From contig JARGPH010000031.1 in assembly GCA_029213065.1 (NCBI GenBank), forward strand, positions 1 through 64,000: DNA of 64,000 nt, in the 5' to 3' direction. Source of the stretch: Verrucomicrobiales bacterium. Its GTDB lineage: Bacteria > Verrucomicrobiota > Verrucomicrobiia > Verrucomicrobiales > DEV007. The notes beneath the pieces are model-generated. The model ran no database searches. It was given only the letters and a program-made list of their open reading frames with translations, and was not told the DNA's origin. How positions within the stretch are numbered: the first letter of the stretch is position 1; each line of letters opens with the position of its first letter. The translations under genes were made by a program, and so were the position numbers. Positions 24,757 through 43,090 of the stretch are shown here, piece by piece.

Positions 24757-27669
24757 ATGGCGAGTTTGAAAAACGGGGCAGTGTGGGCGGTTTGGGGAGC
24801 AGGTTTGCTCTGTTCAGGACTCAGCCCCGCCTCTGCCGAAGTGGATTTCGCCCGCGATATTCGTCCCATTTTGAACGCGAAATGCACCGGCTGTCACGGA
24901 GGCGTCAAACAGGCCGGCGGAATCTCCTTTGTTTACAAAGATCAGGTCATCGGGTTTGAAGGCGAAAGTGGCAACCCCGTTGTTGTCGCAGGTGAGCCGG
25001 AGAAATCGGAACTGTTTTACCGCATCAAAACAGATGATGAGGACGACGCGATGCCTCCGAGAGAGGACCATCCCGAAGGTCTTTCCGATCAGGAGAAAGC
25101 GCTTATCAAAAACTGGATCAGGGAAGGAGCGGAGTGGTCGGGGCATTGGTCCTTCGAGCCACCGGTGGTGCCGGAAATCCCCTCGATTAAAGACAGCGAA
25201 AACGCGAAGACCACGATCGATCGCTTTGTCGTCTCAAAACTCGAAGAGGAGAATTTGAAACCATCCCCCCGGGCACAACCGGGACGCCTCCTCCGCCGGA
25301 TCTCGCTCGATCTTACGGGTTTACCACCCACCCTCGATGAACTTGCCGCCTTCGAAACCGCTTTTGAAAAATCATCGGACGACGCGATCCGGGCGGTCAT
25401 CAACGATCTCATGGACCGTCCCGCTTTCGGCGAAAAATGGGCGACGATGTGGCTCGACCTCGTTCGCTACGCAGACTCACGCGGCCTCGGGCTCGACGAC
25501 CGCAGAACGATCTGGCCCTACCGGGACTGGGTCATCAATGCCTTCAATGAGGACATGCCCTTTGATCAGTTTACAATCCGGCAACTCGCAGGAGACCTTC
25601 TCCCCGAACCGACCATCGACGACCTCATTGCGACCGCGGCTCACCGCAACACCCAGACCAACAACGAAGGCGGCACCGACGATGAAGAGTTCCGTGTTGA
25701 GGCCATCGTCGACCGCGTCAACACCACCTGGCAGACCTGGGGCTCGCTCACCTTCGGATGCACCCAGTGTCATGACCATCCCTACGAGGCATTTCGGAAC
25801 GAAGAATACTATGAGTTCATGGCCTTCTTCAACAACACCGCCGACTCCGATCTGAATAACGACGCCCCGCTCCTGAGAGTTCCCTCAGACCGGTCACAGG
25901 ATCAAAAGGCCGCAGAACTGGACCGCGCCATCGCCGCATCGCAAAAAAGGATCTGGGAAAAAGGACGCGCTGTCGCTGAGACCACCACCTGGGCGGCCAC
26001 GGAGAACCTGGAAGTCTCGACCAATAATCAGACCCGCTACGTCGTCGAAAAATCGGGAGAAAGAGAACAATTCACCACTCAGGGAACCGTCGAGAGAGGC
26101 CCCCTCCTCACCGTGCTGTCGAACATTCCCGGGGCAACCAAAGCAATCACAGCGATACGCCTCACGATCCAACCCAAAAACACAGAGAAAGCACTCAAGG
26201 ATTCGGAGTGGGGATTCGGGATCGACAAACTGCGGGCCGACATGATCGGAAAAGACGGGACCGAACGCCCCATCCTCTTCGAACTCTCCGTCGCTGACGT
26301 TCCCGCGATGCCTCACGATCCGCTCATCGAAGTCAAAGCCGACGGGACCGGTTTCTCCGCTCAAACCCGAATTCATCACCAGCGTGAAATCATCCTCGTC
26401 CCCGCTAAACCGATTCCGGTCAACGATGACCGACTCCGCCTCCAAATCACCAGCAACGGCTTTGCTCTCGGTGCCTTCCCCCTCGTGATCCAGCGTGGGC
26501 ACATCGACATCACCGGTGAAACCGCCTGGACCGATCTCGCACAAGACCCCGGGCACAAAGCAGCGCGAAAAGCCCTTCGAACCACAATCGCAGAGAGAAA
26601 GAAAATCCCGTCGGTAAACATCCCCATGACGAGTGAACGCCCCGCTCAACTGACGAGGCCCACCCACGTTTTCGGAGGCGGAAACTTTCTCGAAAAGGAA
26701 GCACACGTCACGACCGACTTTCCCGAAAGCCTTCCCTCACCGGAAGGCGACAGCCCGGACCGTCTTGCCATGGCGAAGTGGTGGGTTTCGCCGGAGCATC
26801 CGCTCACGAGCCGGGTATTCGTAAACCGGGTCTGGGAGAGACTCTTCGGAACCGGGATCGTTGCGACCCTGGAAGACTTCGGCTCCTCCGGCGAAGACCC
26901 CAGTCATCCTGAACTGCTCGACTATCTCGCGCTGCGCTTTCAAAACGATTACGCATGGAGCATGAAATCCATCATCCGGGAAATCGTCTCTTCTGCTACC
27001 TATCAGCAAAGCGCCATCACCACCCCGGAAGTTCTCGAACGGGACTCCGCAAACCGACTTCTATCCCGCGGGCCGCGCACCCGACTCTCCGCTGAAGTCA
27101 TCCGCGACCAGGCTCTCGCTCTTTCCGGCCTCATCACCGACGAGGTGGGCGGGACACCGGTGCATCCGCCAATTCCCGCCGGCGTCTGGAAACCCTTTTC
27201 CTCGGGAGACAAATGGACCACTCCAAAATCCGGAGACAAAAACCGCTACCGTCGCTCCATCTACACCTACGCGAAACGGAGCATCCCCTACCCCACTTTT
27301 GCGACCTTCGATGCCCCCTCCCGGGAATTTTGCACCCCTCGCCGACTCACCTCGAACACCCCGCTCCAGGCGCTCACGATGCTAAACGACGAAGCCTTTG
27401 CAGAAGCTGCCGCCGGTCTCGCGCGGCGCATGAAATACGATACCAAAGGCGACGTATCGACAAAGCTCGCAACCGGCTACCGCATCACCACAGCCCGTGC
27501 CCCCTCTCCCGAAAGGCTGCAGGAACTCCTCAGTCTCTTCTCCAATCTCGAAGCGCAATACACCTCCCAACCGGACCTGAAAAAAGGTCTCGCCGGAACC
27601 GCCGACGGGGCCGCTTTCACCGTCGTCGCGCAGGTTTTACTCAACCTCGACGAAGTGCTCAGCAAGTAA
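24757..27669 (+). CDS. PSCyt1-DUF1549-DUF1553 cytochrome protein
   Basis: 970 residues. A signal peptide (about 1-27) is followed by a planctomycete cytochrome C domain with haem motif C43-T-G-C46-H47 and a candidate axial Met in 'AMPPRED'. Next is DUF1549/PSCyt2 (about residues 145-360, 'RFVVSKLEEENLKPSP', 'RRISLDLTGLPPT', and a second haem site C335-T-Q-C338-H339). A beta-rich insert of about 250 residues follows, and DUF1553/PSD1 fills the C-terminal third ('PLTSRVFVNRVWERLFG', 'SHPELLDYLA', 'TPLQALTMLNDEAF'). Reaction unknown; two haems suggest electron transfer in the periplasm. The DUF1501 gene starts 12 bp after its stop, the usual two-gene arrangement. Confidence 0.92.
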   Translation: MASLKNGAVWAVWGAGLLCSGLSPASAEVDFARDIRPILNAKCTGCHGGVKQAGGISFVYKDQVIGFEGESGNPVVVAGEPEKSELFYRIKTDDEDDAMPPREDHPEGLSDQEKALIKNWIREGAEWSGHWSFEPPVVPEIPSIKDSENAKTTIDRFVVSKLEEENLKPSPRAQPGRLLRRISLDLTGLPPTLDELAAFETAFEKSSDDAIRAVINDLMDRPAFGEKWATMWLDLVRYADSRGLGLDDRRTIWPYRDWVINAFNEDMPFDQFTIRQLAGDLLPEPTIDDLIATAAHRNTQTNNEGGTDDEEFRVEAIVDRVNTTWQTWGSLTFGCTQCHDHPYEAFRNEEYYEFMAFFNNTADSDLNNDAPLLRVPSDRSQDQKAAELDRAIAASQKRIWEKGRAVAETTTWAATENLEVSTNNQTRYVVEKSGEREQFTTQGTVERGPLLTVLSNIPGATKAITAIRLTIQPKNTEKALKDSEWGFGIDKLRADMIGKDGTERPILFELSVADVPAMPHDPLIEVKADGTGFSAQTRIHHQREIILVPAKPIPVNDDRLRLQITSNGFALGAFPLVIQRGHIDITGETAWTDLAQDPGHKAARKALRTTIAERKKIPSVNIPMTSERPAQLTRPTHVFGGGNFLEKEAHVTTDFPESLPSPEGDSPDRLAMAKWWVSPEHPLTSRVFVNRVWERLFGTGIVATLEDFGSSGEDPSHPELLDYLALRFQNDYAWSMKSIIREIVSSATYQQSAITTPEVLERDSANRLLSRGPRTRLSAEVIRDQALALSGLITDEVGGTPVHPPIPAGVWKPFSSGDKWTTPKSGDKNRYRRSIYTYAKRSIPYPTFATFDAPSREFCTPRRLTSNTPLQALTMLNDEAFAEAAAGLARRMKYDTKGDVSTKLATGYRITTARAPSPERLQELLSLFSNLEAQYTSQPDLKKGLAGTADGAAFTVVAQVLLNLDEVLSK

Positions 27670-27681
27670 CCACGACCGATT

Positions 27682-29163
<1,482 letters not shown>

Positions 29164-29184: not shown

Positions 29185-30657
29185 TCACCCGAACAATTCT
29201 GCGAGAGGCTCGCCGTGATACAACGGCATCGGTCTCCCCGCAGTATCGACCCAGTGGCCGTCACGGGGCAAACCGAGCGCTTCGTAAATCGTTGCGGCAA
29301 GATCCTCGGCACGACGCCCATCGCTCACAGGATGGCCTCCGAGTTTATCCGTCTCCCCGAGGACAGCACCTCCGCGAATCCCGCCACCGGCGAGCATGAC
29401 ACTTTGAACTGCGCCCCAGTGGTCGCGACCGGGCAACTTTGCACCACCCAGCGTCGAAATTTTCGGGGTGCGCCCGAACTCGCTCGCGAGGACCACGAGG
29501 GTGTCATCCAACATCCCGCTTTCCGACAGGTCATCGAGCAGCGCTGAGACAGCACGATCCGTCGGTGGGAAAAGGTAGTCCCGAAGATTCGGGAAAATCG
29601 CCTGGTGATTGTCCCACGTTTCGTTGTTCCCCAGATTCACCTGAACGAGCCGGACACCGGACTCAACCAACTGACGGGCCATCAAAAGGGACCAGCCGAA
29701 CGCATTTCGTCCGTAACGATCCTGAGTCTTCGCGTCAGCGGCATGAACATCGAAGGCGGACTGCGTCTTCGGATCAGAAAGCAAACGCACCGCCATTTCG
29801 CGGTAGCGATCGAGACCGTCAGCGTTCGCCGCTGATGCGAGATACTGCTCCTGTTCATCGAGTTGCTGCCGAAGCTGGAGGCGTTCCTGAAAACGCTCGA
29901 AATCAATCGTATCCGGAAGATCGAGACTGAAGGTCCGGAACTGGAGGTCGTCCCTGTTTTGAAATCCATCGGCGTGATGAAAATGATACCCGGGAAAGGC
30001 ACCGTATCCCTTCGGATTGAATTTCGAAGCCTCAAGAAAAAACGGATCATTCTGACGTCCTAACAATCCTCCAAACTGACCGGGCAAAGTTCGCCCGGTG
30101 CGGTGAACCATTTTTTCGGGAAGAACGAGCGACGACGGCAAGGTCCCCGTGGAAGGCAGGAGCGTTCCCGCCAGTGCCGCGATCGATGGCCAATCGGTAT
30201 CCTTCGGTTTGGTGCGATCAAACCCCGGAGGGAGATCAGTCCGCCCCGTCATCATGATGTAGTGCCCGTCGGAATGCTCGTTCGAACCGTGCGAGAGACT
30301 GCGGCAGAGTGCCCAGGTTTCGCTTCGCTTCGCCAACTCCGGGAGGTGCTCACAAATATGCACCCCGGGAGTCTTCGTCGCGATCGGCCTGAACTCTCCC
30401 CGAATCTCAGACGGCGCATCCGGCTTCATATCAAAACTCTCATGCTGCGAGAGCCCTCCCGACAAAAAGATGTAGATCACCGACTTCGCTTTTCCTGATC
30501 CAGCGTGATCAGACTTCCCGCTCGCCGCTTCAAGCGCAGCGAGTTGATCCATCCCGAATCCACCCATGAGTCCGAGCGCTCCTGCTTTCACCGCCGCGCG
30601 GCGGGTCGACATCGCAGCAAAAGAGCGACCACAGGGAGAGCGAAAATCAATGCTCAT
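29185..30657 (-). CDS. DUF1501 protein, orphan copy
   Basis: 490 residues. A Tat-like signal (STRRAAVKAGALGLMGG) leads into the DUF1501 domain: 'VIYIFLSGGLSQHESFDMKPDAP', 'GRTDLPPGFDR', 'SGMLDDTLVVLASEFGRTP' and 'GRDHWGAVQSVMLAGGGIRGG'. It has no DUF1549/1553 partner on its strand. It is head-to-head with the 30836 operon across a 178-bp gap, so the two may share a control region. It is more like the second and third copies ('GRDHW') than the first ('GRDHN'). Confidence 0.92.
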   Translation of the reverse strand: MSIDFRSPCGRSFAAMSTRRAAVKAGALGLMGGFGMDQLAALEAASGKSDHAGSGKAKSVIYIFLSGGLSQHESFDMKPDAPSEIRGEFRPIATKTPGVHICEHLPELAKRSETWALCRSLSHGSNEHSDGHYIMMTGRTDLPPGFDRTKPKDTDWPSIAALAGTLLPSTGTLPSSLVLPEKMVHRTGRTLPGQFGGLLGRQNDPFFLEASKFNPKGYGAFPGYHFHHADGFQNRDDLQFRTFSLDLPDTIDFERFQERLQLRQQLDEQEQYLASAANADGLDRYREMAVRLLSDPKTQSAFDVHAADAKTQDRYGRNAFGWSLLMARQLVESGVRLVQVNLGNNETWDNHQAIFPNLRDYLFPPTDRAVSALLDDLSESGMLDDTLVVLASEFGRTPKISTLGGAKLPGRDHWGAVQSVMLAGGGIRGGAVLGETDKLGGHPVSDGRRAEDLAATIYEALGLPRDGHWVDTAGRPMPLYHGEPLAELFG

Positions 30658-30835: not shown

Positions 30836-32194
30836 ATGCTAACTATTCTCGGCGAAAACTCAGGACGCTTTTGCGACGGACACTCTAGACGATCCTTTCT
30901 CCAAATCGGGGGAATGGCGCTCGGCGGGATGTCGTTGCCTCAACTTCTCGCAGCGGAATCAGCGAACGGCGCATCCTCGCGGGGAATCAATCACAAGGCG
31001 GTCATCATGATCTTCCTTCCCGGCGGACCGCCCCATCAGGACATGTGGGATTTGAAGATGGACGCACCGAGCGAATACCGCGGTGAATTTCGCCCTATCA
31101 AAACCAATGTCCCCGGAATCGAAATCTGTGAAGAGTTTCCGCGCATGGCGAAGATGGCGGACAAATTCAGTTTCGTTCGTTCCATGGTAGGAGCCGAGGG
31201 TCCGCACGATCTCATGATGTGTCAGACGGGACGCCCCGGAAGATCCAACGTCCCCGCCGGCGGATGGCCAAGCTTTGGCGCCGCCGTATCAAAACTGGAA
31301 GGCAGCACCAATGACTCCTGCCCGCCCTTTGTAGGACTCTCCCCCAAGTGTCGGCACGATGAATGGGGCGACCCGGGACAGCCCGGCTTTCTCGGACCGG
31401 CCCACTCCCCTTTCACCCCTTTCCGCGGCGGCGGAAAAGAGGACATCGCTCTTCAGGGAGTGAGCATCGAACGCCTCAACGATCGCAAAGCCCTCCTCGG
31501 GAGCTTCGACAATTTCCGCCGCGAAGTGGATCAGTCCGGAATGATGGATGGTCTCGACACCTTCAATCAACAGGCTTTCGGCGTGCTCACCTCGAGCGCG
31601 CTCGGTGACGCCCTCGACCTTTCCAAAGAAGACCCCGCCCTCGTCGAAAAATACGGAAAAGGGACCGAGAAGCTTCAGCTCGACGGCTGCTGGAAACGCC
31701 TCGACCAGTTCCTCATGGCGCGACGTCTTGTCGAGGCCGGAGCCAGGTGCGTCACCATCGGATTTTCCCGCTGGGACTGGCACAGCGCAAACTTCAAACG
31801 GGGACGCGAAGACTTCCCCCTGCTGGATCAGGGACTGAGCACACTGGTGCAGGATCTTCACGACCGCGGACTCGACAAGGATGTCAGCGTCGTCGTCTGG
31901 GGCGAATTCGGACGCACCCCTCTGATCAATAAAAACGGAGGGCGCGATCACTGGCCGAGAGTGAGTTCAGCAGTCATCGCGGGAGGCGGCATGAACCATG
32001 GGCAGATTATCGGCGCAACGGATCGCAATGGCGGAGAAGCGACCGAACGCCCCGTCGAATTTCAGGAAGTGTTTTCCACCCTCTATCACAACGTCGGCAT
32101 CGATGCGCAGAACACCACCATCGAAGACCTAACGGGACGACCAATGTATCTCGTCGACCCGGAGCACTCCCCCATGAAGGAACTGGTCGGCTAA
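30836..32194 (+). CDS. DUF1501 protein, first gene of a four-gene operon
   Basis: 452 residues. A twin-arginine signal ([16 protein letters not shown]) is followed by DUF1501: '[24 protein letters not shown]', '[19 protein letters not shown]', '[14 protein letters not shown]' and '[21 protein letters not shown]'. It stands 12 bp before a DUF1549/1553 gene, then a PPC/coiled-coil gene and a WD40/cytochrome gene, all on the plus strand with gaps of 12, 16 and 36 bp. The gene order is reversed compared with 24757-29163, where the cytochrome comes first. Function unknown. Confidence 0.92.
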
Positions 32195-32206
32195 TCCATT
32201 CATCGC

Positions 32207-34720
32207 ATGAGACTCTCCCTACTACTTCTCCTCGCTCTCGGCTTCCTCCCTGCTCAAGCGCAGGAAGCCAAAGCGACGACGCCTGCACCCGCAGCCGAAG
32301 CGGCACCGAAGCCTGCGGCAAAACCGGCGACCGCTCCGCCAGCCGCACCGAAGCACGCCGCACCGAAGCCGGCCGCACCATCACTCCCCGAAGTGTCGCT
32401 CACGTTTCGATTGGATCAGATCTCGCTGAAAGGCTCACGTGCGACGCATCAGTTTCTCGTCACACAGCAACTCGACAAAACTGAAAAAGACGTCACCCAC
32501 GAGGTGACCTTCACCGCGAACCCACCCGGCATTGTCGCGATCGATGACTACGGTCACATGACGCCACTGAAAAATGGAGACGTCACCGTGACCGCAACCC
32601 TCGCGGGAAAGAAAGCGAAATCGCCTTCTTCCGTTAAAGTCAAAGTCACCGATCAGGAGGTGGCGCAGAATGTCCATTTCGCTCAGGAAGTCGTTCCCGT
32701 CTTCACCAAATACGGATGCAACGGAGGAGGCTGTCATGGCAAGTCAGGAGGGCAGAACAATTTCCGACTTTCTCTCTTTGGATACGAACCCTGGAATGAT
32801 CACGACTGGCTCGTCCGCGAATCACGGGGGCGTCGCCTCTCACCTGCCGCTCCCGAAAACAGCCTTCTCATGATGAAGGCGACCGGTGAGATTCCACACG
32901 AAGGCGGAATCCGACTCGAGAAAAATTCAGCGGACTACAACACCATCACTTCCTGGATTCGTCAGGGCATGGAATATGATCCGGACAATGAGTCCGACCT
33001 GAAAATCGATCGCATCGCCGTTTTTCCTTCGGAGCGGGTCTGCAAACCTGGCGGGGAACAGCAGCTCGCCGTGACCGCCTACTACAGCAACGGAAGCTCA
33101 AAAGACATCACCCGTCTCGCGATTTTCGAAGCCAACCAGAAAGGCATGGCGGAAGTCGATGAGAACGGTCTCGTTTCTCTCAAATCCGAAACGGGAACGA
33201 CCTCGATCATGGTGCGCTTTCAGGAATACGTGGACGTCTTTCGCGCCACGATCCCACTGGGCGGAACGATCAGAGAACTTCCCGAAACCAGGAATTTCAT
33301 CGACGAAGAGGTTTTCAAAAAACTCTCTCTCCTCGGCCTTCCACCTTCACCACTCTCCGACGACGAATCCTTCATTCGACGGGTTACGATTGATGTCACC
33401 GGCCGACTTCCCTCTCCGGAAGAAACCCGCGAATTTCTCGCCTCCAAAAATCCTGAGAAACGTGCCGCGAAGATCGACCAGCTTCTCGACTCCCCCGACT
33501 ACGCCGCCTACTTCGCGCAAAAGTGGGCCGGCATTCTCCGGAACAAACGCACCAAGGACACCTACCAGCGCGGCACCTACGCGTTTCATGACTGGATCCG
33601 CACGAGCCTCCAGGAAAACAAACCATACAACGAGCTTGTCACAGAGTTAGTGACCGCCTCCGGTGAAGTGGGACGGAATCCCGCTGTCGCATGGTATCGC
33701 TCCGTCAAAGACAGCAAAGAACAAATGGCGGATCTCGCCCAGGTGTTCCTCGGGATCCGCATGCAGTGCGCCCAATGCCACCACCACCCCTACGAGAAAT
33801 GGTCGCAGGACGACTACTACAGCTTCGCCGCTTTCCTTTCCAGCGTTGGTCGCAAAAAGGGCGAGCAACCTGATGAGGAAATCATCTTCCACAAACGCGT
33901 CGCCCCCGCGATGCAAAATCCCAATACGAAAGCAGTTCTCTGGTTTTCCCGCATGCTCGTGAACCGCTACTGGAAACACTTTTTCTCGATCGCCCTCGTC
34001 GAACCGGAAGATGACATGCGGGTCACGAATCCCGCCACGCACCCCGCGCTGCTGGACCGACTCGCCTCCGACTTCGCAGGAAACGGATTCGATCTTAAAG
34101 ACTTGATCCGCAAGATCTGCAACAGCCGCACTTATCAACTCAGTTCCGAGCCGAACGATCACAACCTGACCGATACCCAAAACTTCTCGCGTTACTACCC
34201 GCGTCGGCTCCAGGCCGAAGTCCTTCTCGATGCGCTGAACTTTGTCTCCGATTCAAAGGACAAATTCACCAACCAACCCGACGGGGTTCGCGCGACCTGG
34301 TTACCGGATGACAAATTCAACAACGACTCCTTTTTCCTCACTGTTTTCGGAAGACCTGAAATGGACAGTGCCTGCGAGTGCGAACGGGTCGCCGACGCCA
34401 ACCTCGCGCAGAGCCTACACCTCATCAATTCCGACACCGTTCAGAGCAAATTGAGCCACGACGGAGGACGCGCCGCAGCACTCGCGAAGGAAGTGAAGCG
34501 TCCTGACAAAGACCGCGTCACCGAACTTTACACCTACGCCCTCGCCCGCAGTCCCAACGCCACCGAACTCAAGGCTGCGGAAACCCACCTGAGCCGGAAG
34601 CGGGAACGCGCCGCCAACTCAGAGGACAAAGAAATAACCGCGGAGAAAGCCGAACGTGAAGCCTTTGAAGATATTCTATGGGCGCTCGTGAACACGAAGG
34701 AGTTTCTCTTCAACCATTGA
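32207..34720 (+). CDS. DUF1549-DUF1553 cytochrome with Ig-like domain, internally shortened
   Basis: 837 residues. After a signal peptide (to about residue 20) come an Ala/Pro/Lys linker (22-65) and an Ig-like (BIG2-type) domain (about 68-145). A variant haem site follows, C171-N-G-G-G-C176-H177 (CX4CH), then a second Ig-like strand set, DUF1549 ('RVTIDVTGRLPSPEET', haem site C521-A-Q-C524-H525), and DUF1553 ('RMLVNRYWKHFF', 'NPATHPALLDRLASDF'). Between 'MQNPNTK' and 'AVLWFSRMLVNRYWKHF' the usual roughly 35-45 residues that begin DUF1553 are missing, so an in-frame deletion is likely. Probably periplasmic electron transfer with its operon partners. Confidence 0.9.
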   Translation: MRLSLLLLLALGFLPAQAQEAKATTPAPAAEAAPKPAAKPATAPPAAPKHAAPKPAAPSLPEVSLTFRLDQISLKGSRATHQFLVTQQLDKTEKDVTHEVTFTANPPGIVAIDDYGHMTPLKNGDVTVTATLAGKKAKSPSSVKVKVTDQEVAQNVHFAQEVVPVFTKYGCNGGGCHGKSGGQNNFRLSLFGYEPWNDHDWLVRESRGRRLSPAAPENSLLMMKATGEIPHEGGIRLEKNSADYNTITSWIRQGMEYDPDNESDLKIDRIAVFPSERVCKPGGEQQLAVTAYYSNGSSKDITRLAIFEANQKGMAEVDENGLVSLKSETGTTSIMVRFQEYVDVFRATIPLGGTIRELPETRNFIDEEVFKKLSLLGLPPSPLSDDESFIRRVTIDVTGRLPSPEETREFLASKNPEKRAAKIDQLLDSPDYAAYFAQKWAGILRNKRTKDTYQRGTYAFHDWIRTSLQENKPYNELVTELVTASGEVGRNPAVAWYRSVKDSKEQMADLAQVFLGIRMQCAQCHHHPYEKWSQDDYYSFAAFLSSVGRKKGEQPDEEIIFHKRVAPAMQNPNTKAVLWFSRMLVNRYWKHFFSIALVEPEDDMRVTNPATHPALLDRLASDFAGNGFDLKDLIRKICNSRTYQLSSEPNDHNLTDTQNFSRYYPRRLQAEVLLDALNFVSDSKDKFTNQPDGVRATWLPDDKFNNDSFFLTVFGRPEMDSACECERVADANLAQSLHLINSDTVQSKLSHDGGRAAALAKEVKRPDKDRVTELYTYALARSPNATELKAAETHLSRKRERAANSEDKEITAEKAEREAFEDILWALVNTKEFLFNH

Positions 34721-34736
34721 TCAAAGCCAGGAGGAG

Positions 34737-37262
34737 ATGATCAACCAACACATAACCTCAGCGCTTCTCGCGCTGTTCATCGCTCTCTTCGTGACTACGA
34801 AGAGTTATGCCCAGTTTCCCACTCCCGAGATACACTCCATCGCCCCCCCGGTGATTGAGGCCGGAAAAACCACCGAAGTTTCCCTGAACGGAACCAACCT
34901 TGACGACCTCACCGGGCTTACCTTTTCCGCTCCGGGTTTGACGGCGAAACCGGTCATGCTCCCCGCTACCGAGTTCAGACCGAAACCGGGTCAAAATGGC
35001 AGCAAGTTTCTCGTCACCGCTCCGAAGTTCACTCACGCGACCACTGTCGAGATCCGCGCGGCGGGCTACTTTGGATTGTCGACCTCACGTCCCATCCTCG
35101 TCGTCCCAACCGGACAGTCCCTCTCCGCCGACAAAGCAGGGGCAGCTCATCATCAACTCGAGACTGCCCCCGAGCTGGCCCGCGAAACTATCGCTTACGG
35201 AAATACCGACGCCGATCAGACTGACTGGTGGAAGGTCACCATGAAAAAAGACGAGCGACTCCTCTTCCATTGCCGGGCGGAAAGAATCGAATCCCAGGCA
35301 GATATCTCACTTAAGCTGGTCGACAAACGGGGCTACGAACTCGAAACCGATCGCGACACGATCGGCCGGGATCCCATGATCGATTTCATCGCCCCGGCAG
35401 ACGGCGATTACTGGATCGGAGCTCACGATGTCTTCTACCGCGGAGGCACCCAATACACTTACACCCTCAAAGCGAGCGCCGCCCCCTGGATCGACACGGT
35501 GAATCCGCCCGCAGGTGTTCCGGGGACGACCTACCGCGCAACCCTGATGGGAAGAAACCTGCCCGGCGGCTCGCGCGGCGAAGACGTTTCGCTCGAGGGG
35601 AAGCCACTCGAAACCCTTTCCGTCGAAATCACGGTTCCGGAGAAAGCACCTGAGATGGCGTTCTCGACAGCAGACCCGGCCACGGCCCTGCTCCCCGGTT
35701 TTACCTATCGGTTAGGACAATCGAATCCGGTGAAACTCGGATTCTCAAGCACCCCGGTAATCGTCTCCCGCGAAAACGTGGAGCCACCCCTTCTTACAAT
35801 ACCATCCGAAGTATCGGCACAATTCGATTCAAAAGAAGACACCGATCACTTTTCTTTCTCTGCTAAAAAGGGAACCGCCTACTGGATCGAAGTCATCGCA
35901 GATCGAATTGGCGACGATTCCGATCCTTTCCTCCTCGTCGAGAAAGTGAGCGTCGATAAAGAAGGAAAAGAATCAGTAAAAACAGTTCGGGAAAGTGATG
36001 ATTTCAGCAACCCCGGCGGGATCACCTTCAACAGCGGATCGCACGACACAGCTCTCGGATTCACCGCCGACGAAGACGCCAATTATCGTATCACAGTGAT
36101 CAATCAATTCAGCTCAGGCAGCCCGATTAGTACCTACCGCCTACAGTTAAGAGAGGCAAAACCCGACTTCGAGGTCATTGCCGTGACTGAGCGACCCTAC
36201 CTCGATCAACGGCAGGTTTTCCCCGCCGCCCCCTTGCTGCGCCGCGGAGGCACCGCACCCCTGCGTCTCCTCGTGCAACGCAAAGATGGTTTCACCGGGC
36301 CCATTTCAGTTAAAGCGGACGGCCTTCCCGAGGGAGTGACCTGCCCCGGTGTTTCGCTGCAGAATCTCGAGACGAGCGCTTATCTCACACTCGCCGCGAA
36401 CGATACAGCGCCCGCGTGGGCCGGCACTATCAAGGTCACCGCGACCGCCACGATTGGGGAAGCTACGATCACTCATCCGGTCAGAGCGGGAACGATCACT
36501 CTGGGAAATAATGACTACAACCTCGCCCGGGTAAAAAGCCGGCTTTCTCCGGACTTTCCTCTCGCCGTGAGCGCGAACGAAGTCACCCCCGTCCGGATCG
36601 AAGTGGAGAACGGCGGGAAGCTCTCGGTCACACAGGGACAGAAACTATCGATCCCTTTCAAACTCGTTTCCAAACACGAACTCAAAGGAAGTCTGACCGT
36701 CACTCCAATTGGGCTTTACGGACTCAAGAAACCTCCCGTCGTCACCGTCGCCGAGGACAAAAGCGAAGGAACCTTCAATCTGAATTTCACTCCACAAAGA
36801 AATGTCTTCGACGTCAAACCGGGAACGTGGAATTTCGTCCTCAAGGGGACAGGAGTGACGAAATACAAACGCAACCCCGCAGCCGCGGAACACGCGAAGA
36901 AAGAGCTCGCTCACATCGAAGGCTTGTCGAAGAAATACACCGCTGAAGCGGCAGAAACCAAGAAGTCAGTGGAGGAGAAAAAGAAGTCGCTCGCCGTTGC
37001 GACAGCAAACCTCGCAACCGCGACAGCGGAGGCCAAGCCGGCTCTCGAGAAATCCGTTGAGCAGGCAAAAGCAGATTTAGCCGGGGCAGAAAAAGCCTTC
37101 GCGACGGCCGAATCAAACCAAACCCGGGCTGAGAAGGAACTCGCCGCGGCAAAGGCACGTTCCACAGCACTGACGAAAAGCGCCGCACAAAAAGATCTCA
37201 AATTCGCCGTCTGGTCACTCCCTCTTTCTGTCGAAATCCTTCCTGAAGAAAAGAAAAAGTAA
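34737..37262 (+). CDS. Exported PPC/Ig-like protein with C-terminal coiled coil
   Basis: 841 residues with a signal peptide (to about residue 25, SYAQ). The N-terminus has an IPT/TIG-like Ig domain ('PEIHSIAPPVIEAGKTTEVSLNG'). Two PPC (pre-peptidase C-terminal) beta domains lie at about 135-240 and 365-475, and further Ig-like strands follow. Near residue 700 the motif 'KYKRNPAAAEHAKKE' starts a coiled coil of about 110 residues (Ala/Lys/Glu heptads), after which a last strand ('KFAVWSLPLSVEILPEEKKK') returns to the beta fold. It is third in the operon and has a close homologue at 40341-42878. It may be a structural or docking partner for the cytochromes. Confidence 0.82.
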   Translation: MINQHITSALLALFIALFVTTKSYAQFPTPEIHSIAPPVIEAGKTTEVSLNGTNLDDLTGLTFSAPGLTAKPVMLPATEFRPKPGQNGSKFLVTAPKFTHATTVEIRAAGYFGLSTSRPILVVPTGQSLSADKAGAAHHQLETAPELARETIAYGNTDADQTDWWKVTMKKDERLLFHCRAERIESQADISLKLVDKRGYELETDRDTIGRDPMIDFIAPADGDYWIGAHDVFYRGGTQYTYTLKASAAPWIDTVNPPAGVPGTTYRATLMGRNLPGGSRGEDVSLEGKPLETLSVEITVPEKAPEMAFSTADPATALLPGFTYRLGQSNPVKLGFSSTPVIVSRENVEPPLLTIPSEVSAQFDSKEDTDHFSFSAKKGTAYWIEVIADRIGDDSDPFLLVEKVSVDKEGKESVKTVRESDDFSNPGGITFNSGSHDTALGFTADEDANYRITVINQFSSGSPISTYRLQLREAKPDFEVIAVTERPYLDQRQVFPAAPLLRRGGTAPLRLLVQRKDGFTGPISVKADGLPEGVTCPGVSLQNLETSAYLTLAANDTAPAWAGTIKVTATATIGEATITHPVRAGTITLGNNDYNLARVKSRLSPDFPLAVSANEVTPVRIEVENGGKLSVTQGQKLSIPFKLVSKHELKGSLTVTPIGLYGLKKPPVVTVAEDKSEGTFNLNFTPQRNVFDVKPGTWNFVLKGTGVTKYKRNPAAAEHAKKELAHIEGLSKKYTAEAAETKKSVEEKKKSLAVATANLATATAEAKPALEKSVEQAKADLAGAEKAFATAESNQTRAEKELAAAKARSTALTKSAAQKDLKFAVWSLPLSVEILPEEKKK

Positions 37263-37298
37263 TCGCTTCCTTTTCATCACCCTGACTCTGCCTCACTC

Positions 37299-40200
37299 AT
37301 GAGACTCCACCTTCTTCTAGCCTGCCTTCTCCTCTCCGCCTTACCACTGAAGGCACAACTGCAGGTCGCCGAGCTGAAGCGCGACACGCCGGTCAACTTC
37401 GCCACAGAGGTTTACCCCTTTCTGAAAACGAACTGCCTCGCCTGTCATAACACAACCAAGGCAAAAGCGGATCTGATCCTCGAGTCGCCACAGGACATGA
37501 TCAAAGGCGGCGAATCCGGTCCGGCGATCGAGCCGAAGAATGCCGACAATTCATTCCTCTTCACCACTGCAGCCCACATTGAAGAGCCGACAATGCCGCC
37601 GGCGAACAACAAGTCGAAGGCAAAAAACCTCACCCCCGACCAACTCGCCCTTCTGAAACGATGGATCGATGAAGGGGCCGAAGGCGACAGCGTTTCCACC
37701 GCAGCCCCCGAGTCGTGGACAATCCTGACAGGACCTCAACCAATCTACACCTCAGCACTCACTGACGACGGGCGTTTCGCTGCTGTGGGACGGGGCCAGA
37801 AAATTAATTTATACGATCTTCGGCTCGGCAAACTGGCGGCGAGCTTGAAAGATCCCTCGCTGCAACACCCTGCTGCGCACCGCGACCTCGTTCAGTCACT
37901 GGACTTCAGCTCAGAGGGAACCCTCGCCTCTGGCGGCTATCGCACCGTCAAAATCTGGAATCGCGCAAAAGAGACTTCCGGAGAACCGCTTACCCTCACC
38001 GCCGATGCGACAACTTCCCGCCTTTCCCCGGGTCGGGATCGTCTCGCGGTGGGATACGCCGACGGAACCCTCTCCGTCTTCGACCTCAAAGCGGAAAAAC
38101 AATCCGTCGCGACAGTCAAAGACCACTCAGGGGCCATCAATGGCTTCAGCTTTTCACCCGATGGAAAGTGGCTCTATTCGGTCAGTGCCGACAAAACGAT
38201 CCGCCGCAGACCGGTTTCGGACATTTCCAAGTCAACCGCCCTGACACTCCCCTCACCCGCGAATACCATCGCGGTCGTTAACGGAGGAAAACATCTCTTT
38301 GTGGGTGGTGACGATCAGGTCATGCGTCTCTGCTCGTCCGATCTTGTAACACCACTTCTCGCTGCCGTCGCGAGCCCGACCCCTTCACCGGAAGCCAAAG
38401 TAACCGAAGCACCGAAAGCGCAGCCCGAACCCGCAACGCCTGCACCAAAACCTCCCGAACAAAAAGCACCTCCCGCAAAAGCGCCCGCACCAGCCAAAGC
38501 AAAGGCACCAGCCCCGGCTACGGCCCCAAAGGCAGCCTCGAAACCGGCAGAGAAACCTGCGACTGCGCCAAAAGCACCGATGCAGACGAAGGCGGCACCG
38601 GCCACTCCCGCTCCGAAGCCGGAACCCGCTCCCGCTCCAAAACCGGAGCCGCAAATTCTCGTGCAATTCAAATTCCAATCACACCCTGTCATCGCGCTCG
38701 AGACGGTCAATGCAGGAGGGACCGAACTGCTCGCAGCGCACAGGGACGGAACCGTGATCCATTTTAAAATCGATCCTGCGAAAATCACCGCGACACCTGC
38801 ACAAGTGAGACGCTTCGCGCACGGCGCACCGCTCAACCAACTCGCAGTCTCACTCACCAGCACGTCGACACCGCGCGTTGCCACCGCCGGACCTGCCGGA
38901 GCCGTCAACCTGTGGAATCTTGCCGACGGAAAGAAAGTCGCCGAGATGAAGAGCGACCCTAACACTCAGCCAACTCTCGATTCCTACACACGCCAAACCG
39001 CAGTCGCAAACCGCCTCAAGGCGCACTGGGAGAAAGCGGGGCCTGTCGCGGCCAAACTCTCGAAAGATGAATCGGAGAAAGCAAAAACCTCCGGTGACGC
39101 CATTGCGAAAGCGAAACGGGAAAAAGCAGCGAAGAACGCCGCATTAAAAACCCTGAAGAATCAGGAACCACCCGCCAGCGAAGCAGATCTCGCCAAAGCG
39201 GCGGAGGCATCCGCAGAAGCCGACCGGGCCCTCACCAGTGCACTCCGAAACCGGGATTCGTCAGCCCGTCTCGCCGGTGACGCCTATGCCGATCAAATCG
39301 CCGCGGAAGCTGCCGCACTCGAAGCCGCCGCTCTCGCCGCCGCGCTGAAAGCCGAATCGGATGCTCTCAGTAAATCCGCTGCTGAGGCATTGAAAACCCT
39401 CATCAGCCTCGACCTCGCTTTCAGCCCTGACGGATCAACACTCGCCGTTGCCCTGAAAGGCGGAGGCCTGCGTCTCTGGTCTTCCGAAACGGGCAGCTGG
39501 CTCGAAGACATCGAGAGACCTAGAGCCACCGGGCCGCTTCACTTCACGACCGACAGCCGGGTTCTTGTCACCTCAGCGGATAAGAAAATCATCCCCTGGA
39601 CGCTTCCGGGCGGTCAATGGCCCCTGACAAAAACACTTGGCGACGGCACCTCCCCTGAGCCCTTCGTCGATCGTGTTCCCGCCCTCGCCTTTCATCCCAA
39701 TGGAGGAAAGCTCGCCACCGGAACCGGAGTGCCTTCCCGCAGCGGCGAAATTGCGATCTGGGACACCACCACCTGGGAACTCATCGCTGAAAATGCGGAA
39801 GCGCATCATGACACCATCACCTCCTTTGCTTTCTCCCCCGATGGTGACCGACTTGCAAGCGGAGGAACCGATCAGTTTGTCAAAGTGTTCGCGACCGATT
39901 CCCTGGAACACCAAAAAACCTTTGAGGGCCACACCAGCCACGTCCTCGACGTTGACTGGAATGCTGACGACCTCACTCTCGTGAGTTCCAGCGCCGATCT
40001 TCAGGTCAAGGTGTGGGACATTTCCAACACCCAGCAGAAATCAAAAGTGGAAGGCTTTCAGAAAGAGGTCGCCTCGGTTTCTTTCGTGGGTGACACCGAC
40101 ACACTGCTGACCGCGAGCGGCGACAAAACGCTGAAGCTCGCCAACCAGCCTCTCCCCGGCGCGGGGACAACCTTCCTTCACACCGCGAACGTCAGTGCTG

Positions 40201-40325
40201 ATGGAAAAAGCATCATTGCGGCAGGTCAGGACAGTGTTCTCCGGGTCTGGGATGCCTCGACGAAAAAGCTCATCAAAGAGTTTCCTTCACCCGAAGCCAA
40301 CTCAGCGAAAGTGGCCTCGGAATAA
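37299..40325 (+). CDS. Cytochrome c - WD40 repeat protein with Pro/Ala linker and coiled coil
   Basis: 1008 residues. A signal peptide (about 1-20) precedes a PSCyt1-like domain with haem site C46-L-A-C49-H50 and a candidate Met in 'EEPTMPPANN'. WD40 repeats follow at about 145-350 ('GAINGFSFSPDGKWLYSVSADKTIR'-type blades). A Pro/Ala/Lys linker spans about 360-455, then more WD blades. A charged Ala-rich coiled coil of about 110 residues sits at about 585-695, and a final WD set closes the protein (about 705-1000). The gene ends the four-gene operon. It probably is a large periplasmic scaffold carrying one haem; interaction partners are unknown. Confidence 0.86.
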   Translation: MRLHLLLACLLLSALPLKAQLQVAELKRDTPVNFATEVYPFLKTNCLACHNTTKAKADLILESPQDMIKGGESGPAIEPKNADNSFLFTTAAHIEEPTMPPANNKSKAKNLTPDQLALLKRWIDEGAEGDSVSTAAPESWTILTGPQPIYTSALTDDGRFAAVGRGQKINLYDLRLGKLAASLKDPSLQHPAAHRDLVQSLDFSSEGTLASGGYRTVKIWNRAKETSGEPLTLTADATTSRLSPGRDRLAVGYADGTLSVFDLKAEKQSVATVKDHSGAINGFSFSPDGKWLYSVSADKTIRRRPVSDISKSTALTLPSPANTIAVVNGGKHLFVGGDDQVMRLCSSDLVTPLLAAVASPTPSPEAKVTEAPKAQPEPATPAPKPPEQKAPPAKAPAPAKAKAPAPATAPKAASKPAEKPATAPKAPMQTKAAPATPAPKPEPAPAPKPEPQILVQFKFQSHPVIALETVNAGGTELLAAHRDGTVIHFKIDPAKITATPAQVRRFAHGAPLNQLAVSLTSTSTPRVATAGPAGAVNLWNLADGKKVAEMKSDPNTQPTLDSYTRQTAVANRLKAHWEKAGPVAAKLSKDESEKAKTSGDAIAKAKREKAAKNAALKTLKNQEPPASEADLAKAAEASAEADRALTSALRNRDSSARLAGDAYADQIAAEAAALEAAALAAALKAESDALSKSAAEALKTLISLDLAFSPDGSTLAVALKGGGLRLWSSETGSWLEDIERPRATGPLHFTTDSRVLVTSADKKIIPWTLPGGQWPLTKTLGDGTSPEPFVDRVPALAFHPNGGKLATGTGVPSRSGEIAIWDTTTWELIAENAEAHHDTITSFAFSPDGDRLASGGTDQFVKVFATDSLEHQKTFEGHTSHVLDVDWNADDLTLVSSSADLQVKVWDISNTQQKSKVEGFQKEVASVSFVGDTDTLLTASGDKTLKLANQPLPGAGTTFLHTANVSADGKSIIAAGQDSVLRVWDASTKKLIKEFPSPEANSAKVASE

Positions 40326-40340
40326 TTGAGAAAGGCCATC

Positions 40341-42878
40341 TCACTTCTTCGCCTCTTCCGTCACGACCACTGTGATCGGCATCGAATAGGTGGCAAACTG
40401 GGTCGTCTTTTCAGCGGCGACGGTTGCAGCTGCTTTGGCCTCCTTCTCCGCCAGAGCCAACTCCCGCTTCGCCACAATCGCCTTTGCCTTTTCCGCTTCG
40501 AGCACTTTCTCAGCCGCCGCGACATCAGCGGTTGCCTTGACCGTTGCCGCCTCACGCGGAGCCCGCACTTCTTCGTTCGCAGCGGCGGCTTCCTTCACCT
40601 TCGCTGAAGCCAGCACTTCCTCTGCCAAAGCAACCTTCTCCGTCGCGTCTTTGATCGCAGCATCGATCGCCACCCCGAGTGCCTTGAGGCGCTCCACCTC
40701 TGCTGCGGTGTGTTTCTCCGCAGCGGGATTCCGCTGATACTTCGCATTTCCAACTCCCTGAAGAACAAACTGAAACTTACCGGGAGCGATTTCAAAGTTC
40801 CCGGATTTCTTCATCGGAATTTTCAAAACGCCCTCCTTCGCCGTCTCCGCAATCGAAACGTTGGGCGGGGACCGGTGCATCCCCGGAAACCCGTGAACAT
40901 TGACCTGAAGGTTCCCGGTGCGCCGCCCCGTTTCGATCGTTTTGATTGGAAGCTCAAGTGTTTCCCCCATCGCCACGGTCCAGACCTTATCCTCTACCGG
41001 AAGCAACTTCGTCGGTTCAACCTCACTGCCAATCACAGAAAGAACCGTCTCCAGATCCAGCCGCGAGCGCACCTGCGAAGCGTTGGCAAAAACCCGCTGC
41101 CCCCAGAGAATCGAAGCCGGATGAGCGACCCGGCGAACGGTCTCTTCGCCCCTTTTGGCGACACCTGAAATCTCAACCGCCCCGTTCCATTCCTTAGCAT
41201 CGTCACTCGCCTGCACAGTGAGAAATCCTTCCTGAGTCTCTCCGCTCAGAACCAGCGGCACGGCACTAACACCATCAGGAAGGCCCTTAACGGTCACTTC
41301 AATATCCCCGTCAAACCCATCCTCACGGAACGCAAAGACACGATAGATGACAGAACCGCCGCGTCGAACGATGGGGGAAACCGGCCACGCGTCATTGTTA
41401 ATTGTCTTCGTCAGTTCAGTGCTGACCATCATTTGAAAATCCGGTTTTGCCTCGCGAATCGCGAGGCGGTAGAGATGCGCGACACTGCCTCCCGCACTCT
41501 GGTTCATCAAAGTGACACGAAACTCCCCGTCCTCATCCGGCATGAACGAAACCGTCGAGTCGAGCGTATCCGCGTTCAGGTCATCGAGATAATCGAGCCC
41601 GTAGAACGAAGGCGGATCGTCATTCTCGGCCACCTTGGTAAATATCTCCGCGTCCTCCTTGTCTTTTCCGACTTTCTCGATCAATAAATAGGGATCGGTC
41701 AGGGTTCCGAGTCGTTGTGAAATCACTTCAATCCAGTATTCCGTTCCCTTTTTCCCTTCAAAGCGAAAGACGTCGTAATCCCCCGGCTCATTGAAACGCC
41801 CCGCAATCTCGACCGGTGGATTCACGGTTTGTTCTGCCGACTCGATCTCCTCCTCGATCACCGGAGCAGTCGCAAATCCGATTTTCACCTCGTTCGAATT
41901 CGGCAGCCCGGTATAGAATCCGGGAATCATTCCCTGACGGGGAACACCCGGATCAAAAACCGCGGGAATCGCCTTCACAGCGGGCACCGCCACCACCTTC
42001 TCCAGAGTTTCGAGCGGCTTTCCATTCAGGATCCAGTTCTCACCCGGAGACCCACCCGGGAGATTTTTCCCGAAGAAAGTGAGCCGCGGAGAGGTGCCCG
42101 GCTCACCTGCCGGTGGAAAAACGAAATCGATGAAGGGATCGCGACTCACCGTGACCCGGTAGAAATAATCTTTCCCGCCTTTGTACAAAGCATCAGACAA
42201 CCGAACATAGTAGGTGCCGTCCTCCTCCGGAGTGAAATCGACGAGCGGGTCACGCCCTGAATGAAACCGACTCGTTTCAAGCTCCCGCCCGTCCTCACTC
42301 ACAATCGTAAGAAGCACATCCGCTTTGGAATCGAGCCGCTCCGCCCAGACCTGCGCGACAATTCGTTCGCCCTTTTTTCCCGAAAACTTGAACCAGTCAA
42401 ACTTTCCATTCCCCAGTATTCCCACCGCGCCGGCCCCGACCGAAAGTTCGTGCGCCGCTTCCCGGCTCGTTCGATCGCCAGTTAAGATGACCTCGTCAGC
42501 TTCCGCCGGAACGACCAGAAACGGCCTCGCGGTGGAGAGCCCGAAGTAGCCCAACGAACGCACTTCATACACCCCCGGCTTCACTGACGCCGGGATCGTC
42601 ACCGTGAACCTTCCCTCGACCGGCCTCCCTTCCGGATAAAAATCATCCGCCGGTTTCATTACCGGAGCCGCTGTGATGGCAGGATCGGAAAAGCGAAGCC
42701 GCCTCAACTCATCGAGGTCCTTCCCCGCTACAGTCACCTCCACGGTCGATCCGGCTTTTGCCACCGCAGGGCTCACCGTGAGCAAATCCGAGTACGGCAT
42801 AAACCCGAAAGAGAGACTTTCCGAAGCAAATGAAAGGAGAATCGAGAGAGCCAGAAACTTCATGAAAAAGCGGTTCAT
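40341..42878 (-). CDS. Exported PPC/Ig-like protein with coiled coil, paralogue of 34737-37262
   Basis: 845 residues from the ATG at 42878; the frame extends to 42929, but those residues are Cys-rich and not signal-like, and the ATG at 42863 is also possible. The signal peptide is 'MKFLALSILLSFASESLSFG'. Architecture matches the 34737 protein: IPT/TIG-like start, PPC domains ('DWFKFSGKKGERIVAQVWAERLDSKADVLLTI', quoted from two strands), 'KYQRNPAAEKH', then an Ala/Glu/Lys coiled coil of about 110 residues and a final strand. It is convergent with the WD40 gene (15-bp gap). The coiled-coil sequences of the two paralogues differ while the flanking motifs match. Confidence 0.82.
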   Translation of the reverse strand: MNRFFMKFLALSILLSFASESLSFGFMPYSDLLTVSPAVAKAGSTVEVTVAGKDLDELRRLRFSDPAITAAPVMKPADDFYPEGRPVEGRFTVTIPASVKPGVYEVRSLGYFGLSTARPFLVVPAEADEVILTGDRTSREAAHELSVGAGAVGILGNGKFDWFKFSGKKGERIVAQVWAERLDSKADVLLTIVSEDGRELETSRFHSGRDPLVDFTPEEDGTYYVRLSDALYKGGKDYFYRVTVSRDPFIDFVFPPAGEPGTSPRLTFFGKNLPGGSPGENWILNGKPLETLEKVVAVPAVKAIPAVFDPGVPRQGMIPGFYTGLPNSNEVKIGFATAPVIEEEIESAEQTVNPPVEIAGRFNEPGDYDVFRFEGKKGTEYWIEVISQRLGTLTDPYLLIEKVGKDKEDAEIFTKVAENDDPPSFYGLDYLDDLNADTLDSTVSFMPDEDGEFRVTLMNQSAGGSVAHLYRLAIREAKPDFQMMVSTELTKTINNDAWPVSPIVRRGGSVIYRVFAFREDGFDGDIEVTVKGLPDGVSAVPLVLSGETQEGFLTVQASDDAKEWNGAVEISGVAKRGEETVRRVAHPASILWGQRVFANASQVRSRLDLETVLSVIGSEVEPTKLLPVEDKVWTVAMGETLELPIKTIETGRRTGNLQVNVHGFPGMHRSPPNVSIAETAKEGVLKIPMKKSGNFEIAPGKFQFVLQGVGNAKYQRNPAAEKHTAAEVERLKALGVAIDAAIKDATEKVALAEEVLASAKVKEAAAANEEVRAPREAATVKATADVAAAEKVLEAEKAKAIVAKRELALAEKEAKAAATVAAEKTTQFATYSMPITVVVTEEAKK

Positions 42879-43090
42879 AATGAGAGTCTTACACTTTGCG
42901 ATACCGCTGCAAAGGCCGCATACAGGCACCTCTGAACCGATTCAAGACGCGCACACGCCGCGGAACCTCACGACCATTTCGCGAACCGGCCCGAAGAGAC
43001 ATTTGCCCCCCACCCGCACCATCTGCCAGCCACTGAGAACGCCGATTCAACAGGGTTGAGTCGATGACATAACAGGGTTAAACTTCGCGA

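What the first reader, a model, noticed from the sequence alone, without database searches (positions are those of the whole stretch)
30836..40325. Four-gene operon: DUF1501, DUF1549/1553 cytochrome, PPC/coiled-coil, WD40-cytochrome
These genes are tightly linked (12, 16 and 36 bp), all exported, three haem sites (one variant CX4CH), beta-propeller and coiled-coil scaffolds. A second cytochrome-DUF1501 pair and a PPC/coiled-coil paralogue flank it. It looks like a periplasmic redox complex coupled to a sulfatase/phosphatase-fold enzyme; the reaction is not known to me. This is my best candidate for an undescribed system in the window.
Basis: partly seen in the sequence, partly recalled or inferred. 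Interest (0 to 1): 0.65.

Follow-up and report, generated by a model that had tools for sequence, protein, structure and literature searches.

The report
Four-gene exported haem-protein module, Verrucomicrobia
Four neighbouring genes for exported proteins, carrying three predicted haem sites, form a gene set that recurs across two bacterial phyla; its core pair looks like a haem-bearing version of a wider haem-free pair, but nobody knows what reaction it runs.

Summary
In detail: four ORFs with gaps of 12, 16 and 36 bp and three haem motifs, one CX4CH. It is a real module, not a chance row. Among the 80 nearest relatives of the cytochrome (Verrucomicrobiota, Planctomycetota), DUF1501 adjoins in 61 of 72 loci with room, the PPC protein in 54 of 63, WD40-cytochrome in 29 of 43. 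In its own genome 46 of 48 DUF1553 genes pair with a DUF1501 gene. Seven of the 48 belong to this operon's class; six of the seven have the WD40-cytochrome (order shuffled, once fused), against 0 of 41 others. Six of the seven carry CX4CH, against 0 of 37 others checked. DUF1501 has an alkaline-phosphatase-superfamily fold, but no Ser/Thr/Cys is conserved where motif mapping expects the nucleophile, so ordinary sulfatase chemistry is doubtful, not excluded. New here: DUF1549/1553 shows profile similarity to DUF1800, which has no haem motif in 43 of 43 sequences and sits beside DUF1501 in 36 of 43 loci. The core pair therefore need not be redox-active; haem looks like an addition. The general DUF1501/cytochrome module is in print; its reaction is unknown. 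A redox complex is the best reading, unproven.

The parts
30836..32194 (+). DUF1501 protein (P0004), alkaline-phosphatase-superfamily fold, twin-arginine type signal
   Evidence: conserved H124, D314-x-H316, E357, H372
32207..34720 (+). Big_2 - CX4CH - Big_2-like - PSCyt2 (DUF1549) - PSD1 (DUF1553) cytochrome (P0005)
32717..32737 (+). variant haem motif CX4CH (residues 171-177)
   Evidence: exact CX4CH in 80 of 80 rows of alignment A1
33767..33781 (+). haem motif CX2CH (residues 521-525)
   Evidence: exact CX2CH in 80 of 80 rows of A1
33940..33941 (+). junction of an in-frame 96-bp (32-codon) deletion relative to congeners
34737..37262 (+). PPC/coiled-coil exported protein (P0006)
   Evidence: homologues downstream of the cytochrome in 54 of 63 loci with room
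37299..40325 (+). PSCyt1 haem domain + WD40 stretches on both sides of a coiled coil (P0007)
   Evidence: homologues in 29 of 43 loci with room
37434..37448 (+). haem motif CX2CH (residues 46-50 of P0007)
24757..27669 (+). PSCyt1-PSCyt2-PSD1 cytochrome of the ordinary class (P0001), two CX2CH
27682..29163 (+). its DUF1501 partner (P0002)
29185..30657 (-). divergent third DUF1501 (P0003); homologues best matched to it lie divergently in L038, L039, L040 and (cut off) L057
40341..42929 (-). PPC/coiled-coil paralogue (P0008), of the type that follows other cytochromes of the P0005 class in relatives

Best explanation
The operon encodes one exported assembly. Its core is a DUF1501 protein (alkaline-phosphatase-superfamily fold, folded and probably metal-loaded before Tat export) bound to a helical PSCyt2-PSD1 protein. 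In this class that partner carries two c-type haems, one at CX4CH, and Big_2-type domains. The PPC/coiled-coil protein is a scaffold, and the WD40 protein adds a third haem (PSCyt1) as electron relay to an outside partner. I infer that the DUF1501/PSD1 pair handles an anionic, probably saccharide, substrate at a metal site and that the haems move electrons to or from it. Shown by computation: linkage, co-divergence, fold of DUF1501, restriction of CX4CH to this class in the genome, similarity of PSD1 to DUF1800. Inferred: physical complex, haem loading, metal, electron flow, substrate.
For: Synteny across two phyla. 46 of 48 PSD1 genes of the genome have a co-directional DUF1501 nearby. 44 pairs co-diverge, Mantel r 0.85, 0 of 2000 permutations reach it. 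WD40-cytochrome in 6 of 7 loci of this class (once inside the cytochrome's own 1732-residue reading frame) against 0 of 41, p 5.7e-7. CX4CH in 6 of 7 against 0 of 37. DUF1501 fold: Foldseek E 1.7e-5 to a sulfatase, VIA Z 19.3 (254 aligned, 3.2 A) to an NPP-type phosphodiesterase. CX4CH, CX2CH and H231 present in 80 of 80 aligned relatives.
Against: No interface was predicted or measured. DUF1501 adjoins DUF1800, without haem motif, in 36 of 43 loci, so redox is not intrinsic to the pair. 11 of 72 loci with room lack an adjacent DUF1501 by the rule used, 9 of 63 lack PPC and 14 of 43 lack the WD40 protein; all four are present in only 25 of 41. The closest paralogue in the genome (C37, 56% identity) has only DUF1501 beside it. 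One class member (C11) has no CX4CH. Co-divergence of linked genes can come from joint duplication alone. Sulfatases are not enriched nearby: 14 of 44 pairs against 12.8 expected.
Confidence: 0.56

Rival explanations
1. Non-redox surface scaffold or polymer-processing machine: DUF1501 plus a DUF1800-like helical partner handles a cell-surface polymer, and the c-type motifs are structural or vestigial additions in PVC bacteria.
For: DUF1800 similarity of PSD1 and DUF1800/DUF1501 pairs without haem motif; the residues shared by both DUF1501 groups do not depend on haem in the partner; DUF1501/DUF1800 genes lie beside chitin synthase genes in other bacteria (PMC5122149, passages).
Against: Both haem motifs of the second protein and H231 are present in 80 of 80 aligned relatives, which is unlikely for vestiges; an extra haem protein is the most class-specific partner.
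Confidence: 0.25
2. A true sulfatase/phosphatase coupled to a redox step: DUF1501 hydrolyses sulfate or phosphate esters of polysaccharides.
For: Fold; Asp, His, Glu and His at candidate metal positions conserved; several Ser/Thr columns are conserved, T131 in all three DUF1501 groups (98, 93 and 92% Ser/Thr/Cys), so a nucleophile is not excluded; the genome holds 144 sulfatase matches, and published context links planctomycete cytochromes with sulfatases (PMC5615132, passages).
Against: The positions where motif mapping puts the nucleophile are not conserved Ser, Thr or Cys (column 66: P46 S43 A5 C5 T2 of 101; columns 120-122 mixed); sulfatase neighbours not above chance.
Confidence: 0.13
3. 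Extracellular electron transfer conduit: the haem proteins pass respiratory electrons through the outer membrane.
For: Three haem sites and exported scaffolds.
Against: No porin family and no multihaem cytochrome among the 19 window proteins scanned with Pfam; only three haem motifs; I recall no known conduit with a DUF1501 protein.
Confidence: 0.05

Closest known systems
DUF1501 genetic module / DUF1501-containing genomic clusters of PVC bacteria (Kamneva et al. 2012; original not held, seen through passages of PMC4452313 and PMC4960237)
   Same: DUF1501 in a conserved cluster with exported proteins in Planctomycetes and Verrucomicrobia
   Different: I could not read which genes it contains; it may be this very module
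Planctomycete-specific cytochrome genes PSCyt1-3/PSD1-5, groups I-III (PMC5615132)
   Same: PSCyt2+PSD1, some with Big_2 or WD40; PSCyt2 genes usually next to a family of unknown genes. The listing counts DUF1501 three times in this paper but the main text held none, so its supplement or legends probably name DUF1501 as that neighbour
   Different: The passages I read do not name the PPC protein, the CX4CH class or the four-gene set; supplementary figures not seen
WD40 genes neighbouring DUF1501 in Planctomycetes (PMC5587647)
   Same: WD40/DUF1501 neighbourhood
   Different: The word cytochrome does not occur in its text, so the haem domain and the cytochrome partner are not described there; neither is PPC
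DUF1800-DUF1501 gene pair (PMC5122149; Pfam PF08811, PF07394)
   Same: DUF1501 next to a large partner whose profile resembles PSCyt2-PSD1
   Different: No haem motif in 43 of 43 DUF1800 sequences examined; DUF1501 column 66 is Asp in 38 of 38 there
NPP phosphodiesterases / alkaline phosphatase superfamily
   Same: Fold of DUF1501
   Different: Glu-Phe where the superfamily has Asp-His, and no Ser/Thr/Cys at the mapped nucleophile (mapping by motif, from recall)

Membership tests
DUF1501/planctomycete-cytochrome module of PVC bacteria | DUF1501 gene adjacent to a PSCyt/PSD gene | tested here: met
   window ORFs; 46 of 48 PSD1 genes genome-wide
DUF1501/planctomycete-cytochrome module of PVC bacteria | full gene list as published in 2012 | not testable with these tools
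   paper not held
Alkaline phosphatase superfamily (for DUF1501) | fold | tested here: met
Alkaline phosphatase superfamily (for DUF1501) | conserved Ser/Thr/Cys nucleophile of hydrolytic members | tested here: inconclusive
   Mapped positions (column 66, columns 120-122) are not conserved Ser/Thr/Cys in 101 sequences, but T131, and within cytochrome-type sets S116, T361, S378, T395 and T415, are; no residue-level superposition was possible
Alkaline phosphatase superfamily (for DUF1501) | metal-binding Asp/His set | tested here: inconclusive
   D314, H316, H372 and E/D357 conserved; coordinates of the model were not available to check geometry
c-type cytochromes | CX2CH or CX4CH motif in an exported protein | tested here: met
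   export judged by eye
c-type cytochromes | haem covalently attached | not testable with these tools
   needs haem staining or mass spectrometry
DUF1800 family (for PSCyt2-PSD1) | profile similarity along the region | tested here: met
   local hhalign score 47.6 against 100 column shuffles with maximum 23.9; the confident part is 63 columns, the rest only at low stringency
DUF1800 family (for PSCyt2-PSD1) | match above Pfam's DUF1800 cut-off | tested here: not met
   DUF1800 does not appear for P0001 or P0005; six reading frames of relatives matched below the cut-off
Porin-cytochrome conduit | outer-membrane porin gene beside multihaem cytochrome | tested here: not met
   none among 19 window proteins scanned, the operon and its direct neighbours included
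Sulfatase-linked polysaccharide utilisation locus | sulfatase genes near the pair above chance | tested here: not met
   14 of 44 pairs against mean 12.8 in 1000 random placements on the pair-bearing contigs, 387 reach it (141 of the 144 matches used)

The most novel reading that the evidence does not exclude
DUF1501 with a DUF1800-type helical partner is a bacteria-wide two-protein machine of unknown chemistry. In PVC bacteria it was turned into a redox device by adding haem sites to the partner, with a matching change in the first motif of DUF1501 (Asp against Ser/Pro at column 66), and then multiplied to dozens of copies per genome. The four-gene CX4CH class is its most elaborate form.
Probability: 0.4. 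Interest if true: 0.72.

Novelty: new variant of a known kind. Interest (0 to 1): 0.5.

Why it matters
This genome carries 48 PSD1 and 49 DUF1501 genes, and He et al. 2017 write that nothing is known about the functions of such genes (PMC5615132, passage). The link to DUF1800, which also occurs in Caulobacter vibrioides and Deinobacterium chartae among the control genomes, would let the core function be studied in more easily handled bacteria. It also gives a clean test of whether haem is essential or an addition.

Tried and rejected
Sulfatase coupling by neighbourhood: not supported in this genome, 14 of 44 pairs against 12.8 expected (141 of 144 matches used because second pieces of three split hits were left out; random placements drawn only on the 27 contigs that bear pairs). 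First profile comparison of the narrow cytochrome alignment with 13 DUF1800 sequences was weak, probability 7, E 0.005; the broader sets gave 62.6 and 7.2e-5. Global mode gave probability 96 and score 50.9, but one of 100 column shuffles reached 126.5, so I do not lean on the global value. The PDB search with the cytochrome model listed 50 of 1355 rows, mostly Ig-like, S-layer and cadherin-type chains; the listing gives no aligned ranges. The haem-bearing helical part was not folded alone, so absence of a known fold for it is not shown. Sequence search of PDB with the DUF1501 profile found sulfatases and lipoteichoic acid synthase only at E 0.3-1. A draft of this report said that DUF1501 has no conserved nucleophile candidate; a recount showed conserved Ser/Thr columns, so I softened it and moved 0.03 of probability towards the hydrolase rival.

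Rows dropped. For the mirror test, 4 of 48 PSD1 genes (C20, C37:11897, C39:305, C21:273404) were left out: no, truncated or split DUF1501 partner. 44 pairs hold 43 distinct DUF1501 genes, because the nearest-neighbour rule used one twice. The haem-motif census used the same 44 cytochromes. The count of WD40 and PPC neighbours used all 48, with flanks cut short at contig ends for some (L158, L179 and others); P0001 is counted among the 41 without, although this operon lies a few kb from it. In the synteny count a 500-bp rule scored L043 as without DUF1501 although one lies about 730 bp before its cytochrome frame. Alignment A1 holds 80 of 95 candidate cytochromes after a redundancy filter, A2 101 of 140 DUF1501 candidates. 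The 43 DUF1800 loci are those fetched, not every match.
Full report
What is there. The four reading frames are real and closely spaced. They encode a DUF1501 protein, a Big_2/DUF1549/DUF1553 cytochrome, a PPC/coiled-coil protein and a PSCyt1-WD40 protein. The second protein carries CX4CH and CX2CH, the fourth CX2CH. The PPC hit of the third protein is below Pfam's cut-off (E 1.2e-4), while its paralogue P0008 passes (3.9e-13). Signals are read by eye: SRRSFL (twin-arginine type) for DUF1501, Sec type for the rest. In 88 of 101 DUF1501 relatives a twin-arginine pattern was found near the N-terminus.

Conservation of the set. A scan of one genome per species with P0005 gave 589 confirmed stretches, of which the best 80 were kept; they come from Verrucomicrobiota and Planctomycetota records. 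Counting only loci with room, DUF1501 adjoins in 61 of 72 (54 upstream and co-directional, 6 divergent, 1 downstream), PPC follows in 54 of 63, a WD40-cytochrome follows in 29 of 43, and all four occur in 25 of 41. Of five same-genus orthologues with short flanks, 5 of 5 have DUF1501 before and PPC after (L213-L217). L101 and L110 are Planctomycetota records with all four types (in L101 DUF1501 is divergent), so the set spans both phyla.

Inside one genome. The genome (5.9 Mb, 80 contigs) has 49 DUF1501 and 48 PSD1 genes after joining pieces. 46 of 48 PSD1 genes have a co-directional DUF1501 within 5.5 kb: 41 with DUF1501 after the cytochrome, 5 with it before. Pairwise distances of 44 cytochrome-DUF1501 pairs correlate at r 0.85 (0 of 2000 permutations reach it); the 38 pairs with DUF1501 after the cytochrome give r 0.89 (0 of 2000). 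Since the pairs are paralogues in one genome, shared speciation does not explain this, but joint duplication of linked genes can.

A distinct class. Seven of the 48 belong to the P0005 class: their score against P0005 is 368 or more, the next is 172. Their layouts are DUF1501-cytochrome-PPC-WD40 (this operon), DUF1501-PPC-cytochrome with WD40 divergent (L142), WD40-cytochrome-DUF1501-PPC (L161), DUF1501-PPC-cytochrome-WD40 (L169), DUF1501-cytochrome-WD40 (L178), a cytochrome fused to WD40 followed by DUF1501 (L139), and DUF1501-cytochrome alone (L156). The WD40 frame of L178 also matches the PPC proteins (E 7e-12), a second sign of fusion. So WD40-cytochrome is present in 6 of 7 against 0 of 41 others (p 5.7e-7), and a separate PPC gene in 4 of 7 against 0 of 41 (p 1.8e-4). 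CX4CH occurs in 6 of these 7 and in 0 of the 37 other cytochromes checked. Shuffled order with kept content, and fusions, argue for a working unit rather than inherited order. A more diverged WD40 or PPC neighbour of the other 41 could have been missed at the E 1e-5 limit.

DUF1501. The AlphaFold model of P0004 (mean pLDDT 86.4, pTM 0.84) matches sulfatases in Foldseek (best E 1.7e-5, TM-score only 0.36) and, by VIA-align among Foldseek's own candidates, NPP-type phosphodiesterases at Z 19.3 over 254 residues at 3.2 A. Conserved residues are H124, D314-x-H316, E/D357-Phe-Gly-Arg and H372. The positions where motif mapping puts a nucleophile are not conserved Ser, Thr or Cys (column 66: P46 S43 A5 C5 T2 of 101; columns 120-122 mixed). 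Against this, T131 is Ser/Thr/Cys in 98, 93 and 92% of the three DUF1501 sets, and S116, T361, S378, T395 and T415 are conserved in the two cytochrome-type sets. By motif T131 looks like the Thr of the superfamily's Thr-Gly (recalled), not the nucleophile, but I could not superpose residues, so a nucleophile is not excluded.

The cytochrome. A close orthologue from L039 that has the full domain was modelled (mean pLDDT 92.5). Sequence and fold searches of PDB bring up Big_2/Ig-like chains; nothing in the rows shown speaks for the helical haem part. CX4CH, CX2CH and H231, a candidate axial ligand, are present in 80 of 80 rows.

The DUF1800 link. The DUF1800 profile hits reading frames with a CX2CH motif weakly in relatives (six below the cut-off, E 4e-5 to 6e-4). 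Comparing 44 PSCyt2-PSD1 regions with 43 DUF1800 sequences gave a local profile score of 47.6 (E 7.2e-5, probability 62.6). 100 column shuffles had mean 15.4, standard deviation 2.7 and maximum 23.9, the reversed alignment 23.6, and two unrelated comparisons 15.4 and 18.6. The confident part is a 63-column stretch in PSD1. Weaker collinear stretches lie at both ends in the low-stringency alignment. None of 43 DUF1800 proteins has CX2CH or CX4CH, and 36 of 43 have a co-directional DUF1501 within the 1.5-kb flank; six of the seven misses have 1.4 kb or less of sequence on the downstream side, and one (L122) has about 1.5 kb. The 38 DUF1501 frames found in those loci share with the cytochrome-type ones the twin arginines, H124, D314-x-H316, E/D357 and H372 (one to two exceptions each at most), while column 66 is Asp in 38 of 38 there and mostly Ser or Pro in the cytochrome-type sets. 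This may be no more than two old clades. DUF1501 and DUF1800 ring in the same 2 of 14 control genomes, and PSD1 in none.

What it probably does. The steady element is a pair, DUF1501 plus a helical partner. In PVC bacteria the partner bears haem motifs, and in this class a third haem motif and scaffold proteins are added. I commit to an exported metal-and-haem oxidoreductase assembly, probably acting on saccharide or another anionic surface polymer, at 0.56 for the assembly-with-electron-transfer reading. The substrate is a guess from published context (carbohydrate-binding modules on some such cytochromes, PMC5615132, passages; chitin-synthase neighbourhood of DUF1501-DUF1800, PMC5122149, passages). 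In this genome sulfatases are not nearer than chance.

Prior print. Searches for DUF1501 (10 papers), DUF1549/PSCyt/planctomycete cytochrome/DUF1553/PSD1 domain (8, several unrelated), DUF1800 (4), DUF1552/1592/1588/1585/PF07587/PF07394 (5), DUF1501 with DUF1553 together (0) and a Kamneva/planctomycete-specific set (3) were run. Passages were seen in PMC5615132, PMC5587647, PMC4452313, PMC2754498, PMC11495043, PMC5122149, PMC4960237 and PMC3597751; no whole paper was read. [quoted passage not shown] 2012 (PMC4960237). That paper is not held, so I cannot say whether it already lists these four genes. PMC5615132 is listed with three mentions of DUF1501 that are not in the main text searched, so its supplement probably names this neighbour. 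No passage that I saw links DUF1800 with DUF1549/DUF1553.

Flanking observations. P0008 is of the PPC type that follows other P0005-class cytochromes in relatives (L054, L083, L093; in L057 beside a cut-off one). The window has no such cytochrome beside it, while a 56%-identical one on contig C37 has no PPC, so P0008 may be a parted partner. The 32-residue gap in P0005 is absent in the four same-genus orthologues whose sequence was read across it (L213-L216); a fifth (L217) matches with the same break in the alignment.

Noticed in passing
window 33940-33941: In-frame loss of 96 bp (32 conserved residues at the start of the DUF1553 domain) in P0005 compared with congeners; real or an assembly slip cannot be told.
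   Followed up: partly
window 40341-42929 (-) and L156: P0008 looks like the PPC partner of another P0005-class cytochrome, whose closest copy in this genome (contig C37) has no PPC beside it.
   Followed up: partly
L139:7118-12313 (-); L178:2665-5514 (-): Cytochrome and WD40 part in one 1732-residue reading frame (L139); WD40-cytochrome and PPC similarity in one frame (L178). G066, G187 and G190 have cytochrome frames of similar length to L139, not checked for WD40.
   Followed up: partly
own genome, contig stretches L138-L183: 48 DUF1553 genes and 49 DUF1501 genes in one 5.9-Mb genome, and 144 matches to the sulfatase family.
   Followed up: yes
window 52108-53430 (-): HipA-like kinase, usually part of a toxin-antitoxin pair; the antitoxin was not looked for.
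   Followed up: no
window 59478-63447 (+): PQQ-type beta-propeller protein followed by a Ser/Thr protein kinase with a weak RCC1-like match.
   Followed up: no
window 43091-44128 (+): Exported-looking xylose-isomerase-like TIM barrel protein with a twin-arginine type signal by eye, downstream of the operon.
   Followed up: no
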